From contig PMXD01000377.1 in the NCBI GenBank assembly GCA_003165895.1, positions 20,327-55,407 of the forward strand: a stretch of DNA of 35,081 bases. Reading direction: 5' to 3'. Positions 78 through 18,283 of the stretch are shown in pieces. Source of the stretch: Bacteroidota bacterium. Lineage in GTDB: Bacteria > Bacteroidota > Bacteroidia > Chitinophagales > LD1. Each line of letters begins with the position of its first letter. Positions within the stretch are counted from its first letter, which is position 1. The translations under genes were made by a program, and so were the position numbers. The notes beneath the pieces were generated by a model. The model was not told the origin of the DNA and made no database searches. It was given only the letters and a program-made list of their open reading frames with translations.

Positions 78-1562
78 ATGAGCGAAGAGTTGTATAATAA
101 TGAGGTAGCCTTTGAACTTCAGCCCAAGGTAATTGACGAATCGCGTCAGGGCGAAGCGCTGGCTTCAGCACACCCCAAAAATGTTAAATCTAACGGAAAG
201 AAATTTTATATAGAAAGCTACGGCTGCCAGATGAACTTTGCCGATAGCGAAGTTGTGGCCTCCATCCTCAACAGTGCCGGGTTCCATGCTACAACCGAGT
301 TTATTGATGCCGACCTGATACTGATTAATACCTGCGCCATCCGCGAAAATGCCGAGCAAAGAATAAGGCACCGGCTGCAACATTTCAGAGGAGTGAAGAA
401 GAGAAAAAAAGGAGCATTGATAGGCGTTTTGGGATGCATGGCAGAGCGTTTGAAAGAGCAATTTTTAGAGCAGGAAAAAATAGTAGACATTGTTGCAGGC
501 CCCGATGCTTATCGTGCTCTTCCCGGTTTAATTGAAGAAGCTGGCAGTGGCCAGAAAGCGGTGAACGTTTTATTGAGCCGTGAAGAAACCTATGCCGAGA
601 TAAGTCCTGTTCGCCTTAACAGCAATGGCATTACTGCATTTATAAGCATTATGCGGGGTTGCGATAACATGTGCGCCTTCTGCGTAGTGCCATTTACCCG
701 TGGACGTGAACGCAGCCGCGATTGGAAAAGTATAGTGGCGGAAGCCAAAGATTTATATGAGCAGGGATACCGTGAAGTAACTTTATTGGGCCAGAATGTG
801 GACTCGTACAGATACTCTGACGACCCTACTTTAATAGGTAAAAAATTACTGGAGGCCAAATACCATGAGGGGGTGGTAAACTTTGCCGGGTTAATGGAAA
901 AGGTGGCCCTGGTGGCTCCCGATTTGCGGGTACGTTTCAGCACCTCGCACCCTAAGGATATGACCGATGATGTATTGCACATGATGGCGAGGTATCCGAA
1001 CATCTGTAAATACGTTCATTTACCGGTTCAATCAGGCAACAGCCGTATTCTGGAAATGATGAACAGAACTTACGACCGCCAGTGGTATATACAGCGCATT
1101 GAAGCCATTAAACGGATTGTGCCGGATGCTGCAATTTCAACTGATATTATCTCAGGCTTTTGTTCTGAAACAGAAGAAGAACACCAGGATACTTTAAGCA
1201 TGATGGAGTATGTAAAATACTCAATGGCCTATATGTTTGTTTACAGTGAGCGGCCAGGCACTGTTGCGGCAAAAAAATATAAAGACGATGTGCCTGAAGA
1301 AGTGAAAAAACGCAGGCTGCAGGAGATCGTTGACATCCACCGCATCCACGCATTGGAATTGAATAAAGAAGACGTAGGTAAAATATTTGAAGTATTGATT
1401 GAAGGGGTTTCTGCCAGAAATAATATGGAATTATACGGCAGAAACACTCAGAACAAAGTAATTGTATTTCCGAAAGGCGATTTGAAACCGGGCACTTATG
1501 TAAACGTGCTTGTAACATCTTGTACATCGGGAACATTAATTGGAACAGTTGTTAAGGACTAA
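78..1562 (+). CDS. miaB: tRNA-2-methylthio-N6-dimethylallyladenosine synthase MiaB
   Basis: Radical-SAM methylthiotransferase that converts i6A37 to ms2i6A37 in tRNAs reading UNN codons. The 494-residue protein has the three-part family layout. The N-terminal UPF0004 domain carries the cysteines for the auxiliary 4Fe-4S cluster (C50 in SYGCQMN, C86 in [11 protein letters not shown]120 in GCMAERL). The radical-SAM core has a CxxxCxxC at C195, C199 and C202 within [23 protein letters not shown]-terminal TRAM domain covers roughly residues 425-494. About 40 poorly conserved residues precede the first domain, which is common in Bacteroidota. The gene opens a co-directional block; the next gene starts 12 bases after its stop. 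In related genomes I recall miaB being followed directly by the sigma-54 activator found here at 3468. Confidence 0.97.
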
Positions 1563-1574
1563 TAAGTAAATAAA

Positions 1575-2945
1575 ATGATTATTTATATTAATAACTTTAG
1601 GGGATTCAACAATACTTTCATACCTATTAAGGATGTTAACTTTTTGGTAGGGGAGAATAGCACAGGCAAGACTTCTGTTTTGAAGTTGATTAAGCTATTG
1701 AGTAGCCCCGAATTTTGGAATGAACAAAGATTTGAAACCGAAGATTTTAAATTTGGCACCTTCAATGAAATTTGTTCCGATAAGGATGGAAAGAGTTTTG
1801 AAGTAGGCATTTATGCAGATGAAACCGCTGAAGGCGGTGGGATTCCATTGCTTTTTAAGTTTACCAACGACAGGGAGTCGCCAAGAATCAAAAATATAAG
1901 ACTTAAATTCTTTAATTATCACATTGAATTTCAATTGGATAATGAGGAAAAAGAAAACAAGGAAATAACTAAAGCAAACTATCGCTACTCAGTTACAAAT
2001 TCAATAGAACCAAAAAAATTTAATTTCGAATCTTGGGTTGAAGTAAATAGCCTCGGTAAAAAACCATTTCTGAATATCCAACCGAACGGCTTAGGTTTTA
2101 ACAGGAGCTCCCTTTTCCATACGATATCTAATTTAGTTGACTCCATTGAATCAAGTGATAAAAGCGTCTTTCATAAGTTAGCTTTTGTATTAACCCCGTC
2201 AATTTCTGCCCAGTACACCGGCTTTGAAAATGCTGTGGTCTGGTTTGCCCCTATTAGAACCGAACCACGCAAAACGTATGACAGCTATAATATGCAATTT
2301 CGAGCTGATGGAAGCCATATCCCATACCTGCTGCGAGAAATATTTGCAATGGCTGCGGATAATAAAAATGTGGGTGTAGGTGAAATTAGTAACCTGATAC
2401 ATCTCTTGCAAGCATTTGGAAAAGCAAGTGGATTATATGATAGTATCTCGATCAAGAAATTTGGCGAAGAAAGATCTGCCCCGTTTGAATTACAAGTAGA
2501 ACTTAATAACAGGAAACTAAACCTTATTAACGTTGGTTATGGCGTTTCGCAGGTGTTGCCCATACTTATTGAAATATTATTTCCTAAGCTGGATACCAAG
2601 TTTGCCCTTCAACAACCTGAAACTCATTTACATCCTAAAGCACAAGCAGCTTTAGGCGAGTTCTTCTATGAGTCATGGCTAAGGGAAAGTAAAAAGTTCT
2701 TTATTGAAACTCATAGCGATTACCTGGTAGATAGATTTCGTATTACTATGCTAAAGAATAAAAAGAATCGTAAAAAACATTTGGATAAATGTCAGGTTCT
2801 CTTCTTTAGTCGAGACAAAACGGGCAATAAAGTTTACCCAATACATATAGCCGAAGACGGTAAATATGAAAGTGAATTACCGAAAGAGTTCGGGGACTTC
2901 TTTGTAAAAGAAGAATTGGATTTTTATTCGTTAAATTTTGATTGA
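1575..2945 (+). CDS. AAA/ABC-type ATPase (OLD/RecF-like, DUF3696-related)
   Basis: Soluble 456-residue ATPase of the OLD/RecF-like group (COG4938/DUF3696-like by motif). Walker A is GENSTGKT at residues 26-33, directly after a beta-hairpin start (NNFRGF) typical of the group. An ABC-signature-like segment NVGYGVSQ lies at 319-326. The Walker B region LQQPETHLHP is at 345-354, and a switch histidine lies in IETHSD (H380). The first acidic position of Walker B is Gln (QQPE rather than EQPE or EEPE). I recall a subset of this family with that change, so ATP hydrolysis is probable but not certain. No nuclease (Toprim) domain follows; the protein ends in a DUF3696-like tail. The PIN-like gene starts two bases after the stop, so the two are almost surely co-translated. 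Base composition is AT-richer than both neighbours. Function is inferred: the ATPase or sensor half of a two-gene system. Confidence 0.85.
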   Translation: MIIYINNFRGFNNTFIPIKDVNFLVGENSTGKTSVLKLIKLLSSPEFWNEQRFETEDFKFGTFNEICSDKDGKSFEVGIYADETAEGGGIPLLFKFTNDRESPRIKNIRLKFFNYHIEFQLDNEEKENKEITKANYRYSVTNSIEPKKFNFESWVEVNSLGKKPFLNIQPNGLGFNRSSLFHTISNLVDSIESSDKSVFHKLAFVLTPSISAQYTGFENAVVWFAPIRTEPRKTYDSYNMQFRADGSHIPYLLREIFAMAADNKNVGVGEISNLIHLLQAFGKASGLYDSISIKKFGEERSAPFELQVELNNRKLNLINVGYGVSQVLPILIEILFPKLDTKFALQQPETHLHPKAQAALGEFFYESWLRESKKFFIETHSDYLVDRFRITMLKNKKNRKKHLDKCQVLFFSRDKTGNKVYPIHIAEDGKYESELPKEFGDFFVKEELDFYSLNFD

Positions 2946-2947
2946 CA

Positions 2948-3466
2948 ATGTGTATAGTAATTGATACTAATGTATTTCAAAGGGTGTTTGACATAACTAA
3001 CATGGATCATTCAAATTACTCGGTAATAAGGGATTGGATTTATAGCGGTAAAGGAAAAATTGTATTTGGTGGCTCTACTTATTCAAAAGAAAATATTGTC
3101 AGTAGTCGTAGAAACAGAAGCTTATTAGCTGTTTTGAAAAGTCTTGATAAAGTGCATGAAGCTGATTCGAAAATAGTTGATGAGCATGAAATCAGGATTA
3201 AAAATATGATTAATAAGGCGGATTTTGATGACCCGCATATTGCTGCAATTATTTGCACTTGCGGTTGTAAACTGGTAGCAACTTGGGACAAGAACTCTTT
3301 AAAATACCTTAAACTGGCCAAAATATATAAAGGTCATTCTGATGTTCCAAAATTCTATTTGTCCGAAAGAAATGCGGACTTATTGGTTGATAAAAATATA
3401 GCGGATTGTTGTACGCCGTCAAAAAAGACAACCAAAGCGCAAAAAGAAAAATTGAAAGGATTGTAA
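2948..3466 (+). CDS. PIN-like domain protein, probable RNase partner of the ATPase
   Basis: A 172-residue protein counted from the ATG at 2948. An in-frame TTG at 2942 would overlap the ATPase stop, but the ATG is the better start. It opens with CIVIDTNVF (D6), the first acidic site of PIN nucleases. It also has DFDDPHIAAI (D92, D94, D95) and an ATWDKNS segment (D114) matching the later acidic sites. The order D-x-TN, DxxD, then D near a beta-strand fits a metal-dependent PIN-like RNase, although overall identity to VapC cannot be judged by eye. The lysine-rich tail could bind nucleic acid. There is no antitoxin gene next to it; its only partner is the ATPase immediately upstream. Its stop lies one base before the sigma-54 activator start, so the end of this gene also carries that gene's ribosome-binding region (GAAAGGA). 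Confidence 0.75.
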   Translation: MCIVIDTNVFQRVFDITNMDHSNYSVIRDWIYSGKGKIVFGGSTYSKENIVSSRRNRSLLAVLKSLDKVHEADSKIVDEHEIRIKNMINKADFDDPHIAAIICTCGCKLVATWDKNSLKYLKLAKIYKGHSDVPKFYLSERNADLLVDKNIADCCTPSKKTTKAQKEKLKGL

Positions 3467-3467
3467 C

Positions 3468-4697
3468 ATGGATATAATCAGCATAAAAAACAGGTTCGGA
3501 ATAATAGGTAATGCACCGGCATTGAACCATGCCATCAGCATTGCAGAGCGGGTATCAAGCACCAGCTTAACAGTATTGATAACCGGTGAGAGCGGAGTAG
3601 GTAAAGAGGTTTTCTCGCACATCATCCATCAGTTGGGGGTGCGCAAGCACAATCCTTTTATTGCGGTTAACTGCGGGGCCATACCTGAAGGAACCATTGA
3701 CTCGGAATTATTCGGACACGAAAAAGGCTCTTTTACCGGTGCACACGAAGCCCGCAAAGGTTACTTTGAAAGTGTAAACGGAGGAACCATCTTTTTAGAT
3801 GAAGTGGGTGAATTACCTTTAGGCACACAAGCCCGTCTGTTACGGGTCTTGGAATCGGGCGAATATATCCGTGTAGGGTCTTCAAAAGTGATTAAAACGG
3901 ATGTGCGTTTAATAGCTGCTACCAACGTTAATTTGCAGGAAGCAGTACGGGCAGGCAAATTCAGGGAGGACCTTTATTATCGCCTGTCAACGGTGCCTAT
4001 TTATATTCCGCCGTTGCGCGAGAGGGGTGAGGACATTTACCTGTTGTTCCGCAAATTCTGCATTGACTTTGCCGAGCGCAACAAAATACAACCGGTTAAG
4101 CTGGTAGATGATGCCAAAGAGCTGATATTAAAATACCCATGGCCCGGTAACGTAAGGCAATTAAAGAACGTTGCTGAACAGGTGTCTATTCTGGCCATGG
4201 AAAAAGATGTTTCGGCTAACGAGTTGAAACAGATTGTACCTGATATTACAGATAATCGCTTGCCGGCTTTAGCTGAGGCCCGGTACCAAAGCGGCGGTAG
4301 TAGTTTTACTGAAAGAGAAATTCTTTACAAACTTATTTTCGACCTGAAAAAGGATTTGAACGACCTTAAACAGTTTGTTTATGATGTTACCAAAAACCAG
4401 GTCAACGGTGGCGAGATGCCGTCTTACCGGGAGCCTATGGCCAATAACAATACAAGCTCAGAAAAGCCGTTACTGATTGCACATCCGGCCAACCAGCCGG
4501 TAGTGTTGCAGGACAAGAAGGCTTATGACGATTCGGAAACTATTGAAGAGTCGCTTTCAATTGCTGATAAGGAGAAAGAACTGATTGTTAAGTCGCTGAG
4601 GAAACACCGGAATAAAAGAAAAGATGCAGCTACTGACCTTGGTATTTCAGAAAGGACTTTATACCGGAAGATAAAAGAGTACGGAATTGAATTATAA
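3468..4697 (+). CDS. Sigma-54-dependent Fis-family transcriptional activator
   Basis: Activator of RNA polymerase-sigma-54, 409 residues. The AAA+ domain begins almost at the N-terminus, so there is no receiver, PAS or GAF sensor domain. Walker A is GESGVGKE at residues 40-47, the sigma-54 contact loop is GSFTGA at 87-92, and Walker B is IFLDE at 108-112. The LYYRLSTVPIYIPPLRER segment carries sensor and arginine-finger residues. A linker of about 90 residues precedes a Fis-type helix-turn-helix at about 370-409 (DLGISERTLYRKIKEYGI). With no sensor domain, activity is probably set by expression or by a partner protein. The ATG follows the PIN gene stop by one base, so the gene is read in the same transcript as miaB and the inserted cassette. 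Its targets are not visible here. Confidence 0.95.
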   Translation: MDIISIKNRFGIIGNAPALNHAISIAERVSSTSLTVLITGESGVGKEVFSHIIHQLGVRKHNPFIAVNCGAIPEGTIDSELFGHEKGSFTGAHEARKGYFESVNGGTIFLDEVGELPLGTQARLLRVLESGEYIRVGSSKVIKTDVRLIAATNVNLQEAVRAGKFREDLYYRLSTVPIYIPPLRERGEDIYLLFRKFCIDFAERNKIQPVKLVDDAKELILKYPWPGNVRQLKNVAEQVSILAMEKDVSANELKQIVPDITDNRLPALAEARYQSGGSSFTEREILYKLIFDLKKDLNDLKQFVYDVTKNQVNGGEMPSYREPMANNNTSSEKPLLIAHPANQPVVLQDKKAYDDSETIEESLSIADKEKELIVKSLRKHRNKRKDAATDLGISERTLYRKIKEYGIEL

Positions 4698-4704
4698 AAA
4701 TAGC

Positions 4705-4935
4705 CGTCATTGCGAGTAACAACGCTTGGGGCAAGGGAAAAAATCGTGGTGACGCCAAAAAGACCTTCCTCGCAGAGTCTCCCTTCCGAAGGTTGGGGAC
4801 TCTGCGTTAGGGTAGTCCGCCCACACGCAGAGTCCCCCATTCCGCAAAGCCGGAAAGGGGAGATTCTGCGAGGAAGGTCTTCATTTTGAAGTTGCTACAA
4901 CGAGGTCATTGTAAGGCTTTGCGAAGCAATCCCGG
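4705..4935. repeat. Palindromic intergenic element between sigma-54 activator and lptE
   Basis: The 288-base gap after 4697 is mostly one structured element. AGACCTTCCTCGCAGAGTCT begins at 4761 and is answered by its reverse complement ending at 4880; the arms are 23 bases with one G/T difference. A second inner pair (GGGGACTCTGCG near 4795-4806 and CGCAGAGTCCCC near 4826-4837) gives a cruciform-like fold. The right half, from CACACGCAGAG at 4822, recurs at 13321-13377 within the biotin cluster. It is flanked by GTCATTGCGAG at 4706 and GTCATTGTAAGG..GCGAAGCAATCCC near 4906-4932, a word pair that is widely dispersed in bacterial genomes. It looks like a non-coding mobile palindrome; the frame crossing it on the minus strand is not a gene. 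Confidence 0.75.
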
Positions 4936-4985
4936 AACTACTTGCGGCAACCAGATATATTGAACTGTAAAGAGACTGTTTTATT

Positions 4986-16387: not shown

Positions 16388-18283
16388 ATGAAGAAATTTT
16401 ACCTTGCCTTTTTTTGCAGCCTGTTAGTTGCGTTTAGCGTACGTGCTCAAACCCCGGCTGAAATTGATAAGCAGAATGACACCGCAGAGTCTGCATTGAA
16501 TCAAAACCCTAAAGACGTACTTATCCAGGCTGAGAAAATAAAAGCCGTGGCCGAAGCAATAGGTTACAAAAAAGGGATGGCTAAAGCAATTGCCATTATG
16601 GGCGTAGCCAATTACAAAATAGACGACTATGCCAAGGCGAAAATACTGATAAGCGATGCCGTCACTATCAATCAGCAAATAAGCGATACCAGCAACCTGG
16701 CCTTTTGCAAATACTGGCTTGGCAATATTGAGCTGAACCAAAGCAAATACAATAATGCACTGGACCTTTTTCAAGCGACGTATGAATTAGCCGAAAAAAT
16801 AAACGACAAAAAAAATATTGCCCGTAGCCTGGACGGTAAAGCCTCTATTTACGAAGCGCTGGGCGAAGATGATAAAGCGCTGACCCTTTACCAGGCAGCG
16901 CTTGAAGCGGCAAAGCAGGGCAATTTTAATGTTTGGTATCCGGGTGTTATGCAAAGCATGGGTAACCTGGCCTACAAAAAGGGAAAGGTTGACTCAGCAA
17001 TCAAAATATATAATGAGGCTATTATAGCATCAGACGAAGTAGGTAACCTGAATAACAAAGCCAATTGTTACCAAAAGCTGGCAGAAATATATTACGGGAA
17101 AAAGCAGTCGAAAAGAGCGATGGAATATATCCAGCAGGCCATGGCGCTTTTTCAGCAAACAGGTTCGATGTCATCGTTTAGCTATAGCCGCCTGCTGATG
17201 AGCTATATATTGCTTAGCGACCGTGCCTACAAAGTAGCCATTGATTTAGCCGAAATGTCGCTTGAGGAAGGCAAATCTACGGGTGAGATTCAGCTGCAAA
17301 AGGATGCCGCCCAGGTGTTGTATTATGCCTACCTGGGTATGGGCGATAAAGGCAAAGCATTGGATTACCATATTCTCTTCCACGAGCTTTCTGAGGCTAA
17401 CAATAATGAGACCCTTACAAAAAAACTGGTCAGTATGGAGCTTGAGGCCAACTTTGAAAAAGAGCGGCAAATTGCAAAAGTAGAAGAGGCCAAAAGAGAT
17501 GCTGAACTGGGCGCACAGATTGACAAGCAAAGACTGGTTAAAAAATTTGCTATTATCGGCATCTTTCTGTTTGCCATTATTGCGGGCCTTGCAATTTTTG
17601 CTTTTAATCAAAAACGAAAAGACAGCAGTTTGATAGCCCGTGAAAAGAAGCGCACTGATGCCCTGTTGTTAAATATTTTGCCCGAAGAGATTGTAAACGA
17701 TTTAAAAAAGGCCGAATACAAGGTAAACGGCCAGGCAACGGTGTTGTTTGCCGACATTAAAACACAGGCCGGCAAAACCCCGGGCAATCCTTTTGTTAAA
17801 CCTATAGTGTCTGAGCTTGATTATTATTACAGGGCGTTTGACGAAATAGCTGCGCGGCATAAAATTGAAAGAATAAAAACAGTGGGCGACGCTTACCTGT
17901 GCATTAGCAGCGCCGCTGTATCGGAGGAAGATAATGCCTATAACGTAACAAATGCCGCACTTGAAATAATCAGGTTTGTAAAACAGGCCCAACAGCCTAA
18001 AGCCGATAACGGCGAGTCATTTTTTGAGATAAGCATAGGGATTCACACCGGACCGGTTATTGCGGGCATTATTGGTATCCGCAAATTTTCGTACGATGTT
18101 TGGGGCGATACTGTAAACATTGCTGCGCGAATGGAGCAGCACGGCGAAGAGGGCAAAATCAATATTTCAGGAGGAACCTATAAGCTGGTCAAAAACCGGT
18201 TTATCTGCGTTTTCAGAGGGGAGATGGAAACTAAAAAGAAAGAGAAAATAGACATGTATTTTGTAGAGCGGGCGGCCGTTTAG
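16388..18283 (+). CDS. Membrane TPR protein with class III adenylate cyclase domain
   Basis: Predicted sensor that makes cAMP. Of 631 residues, 1-20 form a signal peptide (FYLAFFCSLLVAFSVRAQ). TPR-type helical repeats fill about 60-330 (for example YWLGNIELNQSKYNNALDLF), followed by a coiled coil at about 335-385. A transmembrane helix lies at 387-407 (FAIIGIFLFAIIAGLAIFAF). The cyclase domain spans about 430-631: ILPEEIVNDL, metal Asp D456 in VLFADIK, K497 and D501 in RIKTVGDAY, D570 in DVWGDTVN, N577 and R581. The K497/D570 pair is the adenine-selecting pair of adenylate cyclases. The TPR part should therefore be periplasmic and the cyclase cytoplasmic. The ligand of the TPR part is unknown. 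It converges with the DUF4442 gene. Confidence 0.9.
   Translation: MKKFYLAFFCSLLVAFSVRAQTPAEIDKQNDTAESALNQNPKDVLIQAEKIKAVAEAIGYKKGMAKAIAIMGVANYKIDDYAKAKILISDAVTINQQISDTSNLAFCKYWLGNIELNQSKYNNALDLFQATYELAEKINDKKNIARSLDGKASIYEALGEDDKALTLYQAALEAAKQGNFNVWYPGVMQSMGNLAYKKGKVDSAIKIYNEAIIASDEVGNLNNKANCYQKLAEIYYGKKQSKRAMEYIQQAMALFQQTGSMSSFSYSRLLMSYILLSDRAYKVAIDLAEMSLEEGKSTGEIQLQKDAAQVLYYAYLGMGDKGKALDYHILFHELSEANNNETLTKKLVSMELEANFEKERQIAKVEEAKRDAELGAQIDKQRLVKKFAIIGIFLFAIIAGLAIFAFNQKRKDSSLIAREKKRTDALLLNILPEEIVNDLKKAEYKVNGQATVLFADIKTQAGKTPGNPFVKPIVSELDYYYRAFDEIAARHKIERIKTVGDAYLCISSAAVSEEDNAYNVTNAALEIIRFVKQAQQPKADNGESFFEISIGIHTGPVIAGIIGIRKFSYDVWGDTVNIAARMEQHGEEGKINISGGTYKLVKNRFICVFRGEMETKKKEKIDMYFVERAAV

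What the first reader, a model, noticed from the sequence alone, without database searches (positions are those of the whole stretch)
1575..3466. Two-gene ATPase + PIN-like nuclease cassette, candidate undescribed defence system
Seen: an OLD/RecF-like ATPase (Walker A 26-33, LQQPETHLHP, H380) is followed two bases later by a PIN-like protein with D6, D92-95 and D114. Known: several anti-phage systems pair an ABC/OLD-like ATPase with a nuclease or Toprim effector (AbiL/RloAB, PARIS, Gabija, Septu). A PIN effector without antitoxin is not one of the named pairs I can recall. Inference: the ATPase senses infection or damage and holds or activates the PIN RNase.
Basis: partly seen in the sequence, partly recalled or inferred. 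Interest (0 to 1): 0.8.

Follow-up and report, generated by a model that had tools for sequence, protein, structure and literature searches.

The report
Mobile ATPase plus PIN-nuclease defence pair
A bacterium carries a horizontally acquired two-gene cassette, an ATP-binding sensor-like protein and a VapC-like RNA-cutting toxin, that recurs as a pair in many phyla, sits among known anti-phage genes and inside phages, and is most likely an unnamed anti-virus system.

Summary
In detail: an ABC/OLD-like ATPase (1575-2945) is followed two bases later by a 172-aa protein (2948-3466) whose AlphaFold2 model (pLDDT 94) matches VapC PIN toxins. The pair is foreign cargo: 33-36% GC against 44% in the flanking genes, missing from 17 congeners, wedged between miaB and an ntrC-type gene that are otherwise adjacent. 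A PIN-led scan of about 85,000 species found 53 loci in more than ten phyla, plus one viral contig; 52 of these 54 have the ATPase directly upstream (gap -1 to 23 bp). An ATPase-led viral scan found that contig again and a second phage-borne pair. ATPase and PIN distances are congruent (Mantel r 0.93). Neighbours include Hma, HerA/SIR2, AbiEi, type IV restriction and QueC genes; control regions show far fewer defence models. New here: the ATPase Walker B is QQPE in 54/54 family members, while related ATPases without this PIN keep E[EQ]PE, predicting an ATP-binding, weakly hydrolysing clamp. Best reading: a PARIS-like abortive-infection module with a PIN RNase instead of the Toprim effector. 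Phage defence, trigger and RNA target are untested. I found no name for it in PADLOC 2023 or the searchable papers. New variant of a known kind.

The parts
1575..2945 (+). ABC/OLD-like ATPase (456 aa), no Toprim domain; putative sensor/holder
   Evidence: AAA_15 1.3e-23, AAA_21 3e-15; PADLOC best NsnB 2e-41; family alignment A5
1650..1673 (+). Walker A GENSTGKT (residues 26-33)
   Evidence: G31 and K32 invariant in 54/54
2535..2552 (+). ABC signature-like motif GYGVSQ (residues 321-326)
   Evidence: G321, Y322, G323, Q326 invariant in 54/54
2610..2621 (+). Walker B region QQPE (residues 346-349); both usual acidic residues are Gln
   Evidence: QQPE in 54/54 family members; OLD and GajA have EEPE, PtuA DQ-E at the same columns; related ATPases without this PIN have EEPE/EQPE
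2712..2714 (+). H-loop His380
   Evidence: invariant in 54/54
2948..3466 (+). PIN-domain nuclease (172 aa), putative RNase effector
   Evidence: AlphaFold2 pLDDT 94.4; VapC matches; PIN_3/PIN hits in family members
2963..2965 (+). PIN active-site Asp6
   Evidence: 56/56; partly selected by the scan pattern, but also present in the 7 independent whole-protein hits
3089..3091 (+). PIN active-site Glu48
   Evidence: 56/56, not part of the scan pattern
3230..3232 (+). PIN active-site Asp95
   Evidence: 56/56, not part of the scan pattern
3287..3289 (+). PIN active-site Asp114
   Evidence: 52/56, Glu in the other 4
1563..3467 (+). extent of the inserted cassette between two conserved housekeeping genes
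   Evidence: miaB and ntrC-type gene adjacent in relatives, about 38 bp apart in the closest one; GC 35.7/33.1% against 44.4% in both flanks
78..1562 (+). flanking host gene: miaB-like radical SAM/TRAM protein (not part of the system)
   Evidence: Pfam
3468..4697 (+). flanking host gene: sigma-54 activator/Fis regulator (not part of the system), starts 1 bp after the PIN stop
   Evidence: Pfam; found in 61/61 relatives

Best explanation
A mobile two-gene anti-phage module of the sensor-ATPase plus toxin kind. The ABC/OLD-like ATPase binds ATP and keeps the PIN RNase inactive in a complex; a phage product, or a fall in nucleotide level during infection, changes the ATPase and frees or activates the PIN domain, which cleaves an essential RNA (a tRNA or rRNA, as VapC toxins do) and stops growth before phage release. 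Shown here: PIN fold with four acidic residues, obligate gene pairing and co-evolution, insertion and sparse spread across phyla, defence and phage neighbourhoods, loss of the Walker B acids. Inferred: physical complex, inhibition, trigger, RNA target, and abortive infection itself.
For: PIN fold and catalytic residues. 52/54 PIN-led loci have the ATPase immediately upstream; ATPase-led searches find the PIN beside close relatives (2 of 2 close viral hits; 6 of 7 high-scoring Bacteroidota hits, one of these with a decayed PIN). Tree distances congruent: Mantel r 0.93 overall, 0.69 and 0.91 within the two clades, no permutation as high. Absent from congeners and empty site; low GC; cross-phylum kin. 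Defence neighbours: HerA, SIR2, AbiEi, type IV REase, QueC, DolB, HEC-01B; HmaB/HmaC, DUF1156 methylase, DrmC, SoFic, PD-T4-4_A, reverse transcriptase; 57 and 90 PADLOC models hit against 14 in control regions of the same contigs. In four distinct loci the pair lies between a large methylase and an AAA+ protein of Hma type. Two phage contigs carry it, one between portal and terminase genes. Precedent: in PARIS the AriA ATPase holds the AriB tRNase inactive until a phage trigger (PMC12409363); GajA uses ATP binding, probably without hydrolysis, as a brake (PMC12796447).
Against: No functional data. In the window the pair is isolated among housekeeping genes. The linked ATPase-PIN AlphaFold model (pTM 0.73) does not settle whether the two proteins bind. 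Model counts in the neighbourhood test are not independent proteins, because overlapping PADLOC models hit the same protein. The PIN-led scan was seeded by an N-terminal motif.
Confidence: 0.62

Rival explanations
1. A plain toxin-antitoxin or addiction module: the ATPase is only an antitoxin for a VapC-like toxin, kept for its own maintenance or for general stress, with no phage sensing.
For: Best fold matches are VapC toxins; two-gene operon with overlapping or near-touching genes; sparse, mobile distribution.
Against: VapB antitoxins are small DNA-binding proteins; here the partner is a conserved 430-500 aa ATPase with intact Walker A, signature and H-loop. No match in 72,556 plasmids for the window pair or two relatives, where addiction modules abound. 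Strong defence neighbourhoods.
Confidence: 0.15
2. A DNA-targeting system of Septu type: the ATPase recognises foreign DNA and the PIN domain cuts DNA rather than RNA.
For: The ATPase model is structurally closest to GajA, PtuA (retron Ec78), Rad50 and SMC heads, which act on DNA.
Against: The PIN model matches RNA-cutting VapC toxins. The ATPase carries no recognised DNA-binding addition.
Confidence: 0.1
3. The pair is one module of a larger system, joined to a QueC-type protein-modification cassette (MGSTG protein, PfkB/deoxyribosyltransferase, QueC, OGG-like glycosylase).
For: Five Bacteroidota loci from different families carry this four-gene cassette 9-32 bp behind the PIN gene.
Against: Only 5 of 52 pairs have it; the window genome gave no match to its QueC. 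The pair stands alone in most loci, including the window.
Confidence: 0.08
4. A housekeeping or repair role, as for the archaeal OLD-family ATPase Cran1, which acts in the cell cycle rather than in defence (PMC12796447).
For: The window copy lies in what looks like a miaB-ntrC operon among housekeeping genes.
Against: Sporadic presence (7 of 395 Bacteroidota genomes), absent from congeners, foreign composition, phage carriage.
Confidence: 0.05

Closest known systems
PARIS (AriA ATPase + AriB Toprim tRNase)
   Same: Two adjacent genes; an ABC/OLD-like ATPase without its own nuclease domain plus a small separate nuclease likely to cut RNA; phage carriage; PF13175/PF13304 ATPase domain.
   Different: Effector is a PIN domain, not Toprim. 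Walker B is QQPE. PADLOC AriA models match at 6e-24, but their lengths (373, 304) are those of the general Pfam AAA_15/AAA_21 models, so this is not a specific AriA match.
Menshen (NsnA, NsnB, NsnC)
   Same: NsnB is the best PADLOC match of the ATPase (2e-41; 8 of 8 members tested).
   Different: Menshen is described as holding a DUF262 protein and a predicted OLD-type nuclease (PMC10952713). Here there are two genes, one a PIN, and no PADLOC match of the PIN.
Septu (PtuA ATPase + PtuB HNH) and retron Ec78 PtuAB
   Same: Two-gene ATPase plus separate nuclease; PtuA also lacks the usual Glu after the Walker B acid (DQ-E).
   Different: HNH DNase against PIN; only weak overall sequence match.
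Gabija GajA / OLD family
   Same: ABC head with LHP and THS motifs; structural match. GajA is thought to bind but not hydrolyse ATP (PMC12796447).
   Different: GajA/OLD have a fused Toprim nuclease and EEPE at Walker B; here no Toprim is present.
VapBC toxin-antitoxin
   Same: PIN fold, D-E-D-D active site, likely RNase.
   Different: No VapB; partner is an ATPase; the profile of this PIN family finds one to a few copies per genome and only weak, non-paired PIN genes besides.
DS-3 and DS-5 PIN-containing defence systems (DefensePredictor, PMC13092281)
   Same: PIN nucleases shown to be needed for phage defence without being a classical TA pair.
   Different: DS-3 is one protein with a split PIN; DS-5 pairs PIN with a DUF5830/AcrIF4-like protein; neither is described with an ATPase partner.

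Membership tests
PIN-domain nuclease superfamily | PIN fold (three-layer alpha/beta/alpha) | tested here: met
   AlphaFold2 pLDDT 94.4; VapC matches at Foldseek prob up to 1.00, TM-score (target length) about 0.6
PIN-domain nuclease superfamily | Conserved acidic active site (D, E, D, D/N) | tested here: met
   D6, E48, D95 in 56/56, D114 in 52/56
PIN-domain nuclease superfamily | RNase activity | not testable with these tools
   needs biochemistry
OLD-family nucleases | ABC ATPase head with LHP and THS motifs | tested here: met
OLD-family nucleases | Toprim nuclease domain (fused, or separate as in class 4) | tested here: not met
   no Toprim in either protein; partner is PIN
PARIS | AriB Toprim effector | tested here: not met
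   partner is PIN; no PADLOC hit
PARIS | ATPase hexamer sequesters the effector until a phage trigger | not testable with these tools
   linked-chain model inconclusive, pTM 0.73
Menshen | Three genes, with a DUF262 protein and an OLD-type nuclease | tested here: not met
   two-gene cassette between miaB and ntrC; PIN matches no PADLOC family; gene content of Menshen from PMC10952713
Septu | PtuB HNH endonuclease partner | tested here: not met
   partner is PIN
VapBC | Small VapB antitoxin next to VapC | tested here: not met
   neighbours are the ATPase and ntrC
Anti-phage defence system (general) | Enrichment next to known defence genes | tested here: met
   against control; counts are of models, not proteins
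Anti-phage defence system (general) | Protects cells from phage | not testable with these tools
   needs a plaque assay

The most novel reading that the evidence does not exclude
The PIN-coupled ATPases are a distinct sensor class that has given up hydrolysis (QQPE at Walker B) and works as an ATP-loaded clamp on a VapC-like RNase, so that nucleotide depletion or a phage trigger opens the clamp: a sensor-effector pairing not represented among the named systems I could check.
Probability: 0.3. Interest if true: 0.75.

Novelty: new variant of a known kind. Interest (0 to 1): 0.62.

Why it matters
It adds a PIN RNase to the set of effectors that OLD/ABC-type sensor ATPases control, beside Toprim and HNH, which supports the view that one sensor scaffold is paired with interchangeable nucleases. 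The family-wide loss of the Walker B acids, kept by relatives without this PIN, is a specific, testable hint that ATP binding rather than hydrolysis is the switch. PADLOC 2023 has no model for the PIN partner, so annotation with that library would miss the pair. The five loci joined to a QueC-type cassette also place an uncharacterised QueC cluster in a defence setting.

Tried and rejected
Fixed housekeeping pair: rejected, the locus is empty in congeners. Membership in PARIS, Septu, Menshen or Gabija: rejected on partner identity. PADLOC AriA hits taken as specific: rejected, those models have the lengths of Pfam AAA_15/AAA_21. Weak TATA-binding-protein and MetOD2 hits of the PIN: low-scoring chance matches, not supported by the fold. 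Plasmid carriage of the window pair or of two relatives' PINs: none found in 72,556 records. Phage-record search with the window PIN: none; with the ATPase only distant P2-like hits whose partner is a different 333-aa gene. A strict N-terminal Met-Cys as a family feature: dropped, since the scan pattern selected for it and phage locus L166 starts MTIVVDVN. ATPase-PIN interface from a linked AlphaFold2 model (stop codon of L087 read as Gly, giving an 8-residue linker): pTM 0.73, inconclusive. BFVD fold search with the PIN: no significant match.

Full report
What is there. The window encodes a 456-aa ATPase at 1575-2945 and, two bases later, a 172-aa protein at 2948-3466, both on the + strand. 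The ATPase matches AAA_15 (1.3e-23) and AAA_21 (3e-15) in Pfam. It has Walker A GENSTGKT, a signature-like GYGVSQ, LQQPETHLHP and an H-loop THS, and no Toprim domain. The small protein alone gives only a marginal PIN_3 hit (E 0.017), but relatives of it reach 4.4e-7 for PIN_3 and 2.8e-6 for PIN. An AlphaFold2 model from 56 relatives has pLDDT 94.4, and its best PDB matches are mostly VapC toxins with Foldseek probability up to 1.00 (a cyclodehydratase, RohQ, appears among them at lower probability). Active-site positions D6, E48 and D95 are invariant in 56/56 and D114 in 52/56.

It was inserted. The flanks are a miaB-like gene and a sigma-54 activator; the activator is found in all 61 genomes searched. 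In the nearest congener (97% identity in that protein) the two genes lie about 38 bp apart with nothing between, and other congeners show the same junction. The PIN is missing from 60 relatives by single-sequence search. With a profile of the family, among 100 genomes only the window genome and one genome of the same order have a strong match; four others have weak, divergent PIN hits. GC is 35.7% and 33.1% against 44.4% in both flanks. The cassette fits tightly: 12 bp after miaB, 1 bp before the activator, so it may be read from the host operon (inference).

It is nearly always a pair. A search of 395 Bacteroidota genomes found 7 carriers, all with the ATPase next door. A scan of about 85,000 species genomes with the PIN alignment gave 53 loci in Bacteroidota, Pseudomonadota, Chloroflexota, Nitrospirota, Acidobacteriota, Poribacteria, Planctomycetota, Actinomycetota and others, and a viral scan gave one. 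In 52 of these 54 the ATPase sits directly upstream with gaps of -1 to 23 bp; of the other two, one PIN lies at a contig edge and one has unrelated sequence upstream. Searching from the ATPase side gives the same picture: 6 of 7 high-scoring Bacteroidota loci have the PIN, one of them decayed, as do both close viral hits. Distances in the two gene trees agree (Mantel r 0.93; 0.69 and 0.91 within the two clades; 0 of 2000 permutations as high). The window PIN has its nearest kin in Nitrospirota and Pseudomonadota, though branch support there is modest.

Defence and phage context. Genes within three positions of the pair match PADLOC models of QueC (5 loci), HerA, SIR2, AbiEi, type IV restriction, DolB and HEC-01B, and HmaB, HmaC, DUF1156 methylase, type III methylase, DrmC, SoFic, PD-T4-4_A, HEC-05 and a reverse transcriptase. 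At the same cut-off 57 and 90 models were hit, against 14 in 122 genes taken far away on the same contigs. This compares model counts, not independent proteins. In four distinct loci (L090, L092, L088/L046, L044) the pair lies between a 991-998-aa methylase and a 903-921-aa AAA+ protein that are homologous across those loci. These are very likely the HmaB and HmaC hits, although the batch search does not name the members. Two phage contigs carry the pair: L102 between a portal and a terminase gene on the opposite strand and L166 at the end of a 42-kb contig.

A new structural clue. The Walker B stretch reads QQPE in 54 of 54 family ATPases, whereas OLD (6p74) and GajA read EEPE and PtuA reads DQ-E at the aligned columns. 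Related ATPases found in the same searches without this PIN family beside them read EEPE or EQPE; the divergent pair L157, which has the PIN, reads QQPE, and so does the lone ATPase L133. Loss of both acids with Walker A, signature and H-loop kept predicts ATP binding with weak or no hydrolysis. This is an inference from sequence: in Cran1, mutating the Walker B acids had no effect (PMC12796447), so the motif alone is not proof. GajA is held to have lost hydrolysis while using ATP as a brake (same source).

Mechanism. The best-supported model is PARIS-like: in PARIS the AriA ATPase assembly holds AriB, and a phage protein triggers release of this tRNase (PMC12409363). Here the ATPase would hold the PIN and free it on infection. 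Shown: gene pairing, fold, residues, mobility, context. Inferred: binding, inhibition, trigger, RNA target, abortive outcome. A linked-chain AlphaFold2 model of the L087 pair reached pTM 0.73 with a disordered linker and does not settle the interface; its ATPase part matches GajA, PtuA, Rad50 and SMC heads.

Novelty. PADLOC 2023 holds no model for the PIN; the best ATPase match is NsnB of Menshen, a system with different partners. PIN effectors are known in defence (DS-3, DS-5, PMC13092281), and ATPase-nuclease pairs are a known kind, so this is a new variant. The ABC-ATPase survey of Krishnan et al. 2020 was not readable here and may list the arrangement, and the paper searches cover only open-licence text.

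Noticed in passing
L060 7637-10617, L061 8529-11532, L065 8513-11492, L067 8529-11529, L069 8493-11477: A conserved four-gene cassette directly behind the PIN gene in five Bacteroidota loci: a 123-aa protein starting MGSTG, a PfkB-like/deoxyribosyltransferase protein, a QueC-family protein and an OGG-like HhH glycosylase. QueC cluster 4 with PfkB-NDT neighbours is reported without a known role (PMC13329287), and MGTS/MGGS N-termini are QueC substrates in qatABCD and type IV CBASS (PMC13279940), so this may be a protein-deazaguanylation defence module.
   Followed up: partly
window 2610-2621; alignment A5: QQPE in place of the usual acidic Walker B in all PIN-coupled ATPases; related ATPases without this PIN keep EEPE/EQPE.
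   Followed up: partly
L090 4512-8468: Two diverged ATPase-PIN pairs in tandem between Hma-type methylase and AAA+ genes.
   Followed up: no
L102 6487-8537: The pair sits on the opposite strand between a phage portal gene and a terminase gene.
   Followed up: partly
L134 2189-2689: A frame-broken, decayed PIN next to an ATPase that still has an open reading frame.
   Followed up: no
L150 830-2661: A more distant pair: AQPE ATPase followed by a longer PIN-like protein, a possible further branch of the same design.
   Followed up: no
window 4700-4960: Intergenic stretch with apparent inverted repeats around 'ccttcctcgcagagtctccc', which may be a small repeat element (seen by eye).
   Followed up: no
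window 16388-18283: TPR protein with a C-terminal adenylate/guanylate cyclase domain.
   Followed up: no
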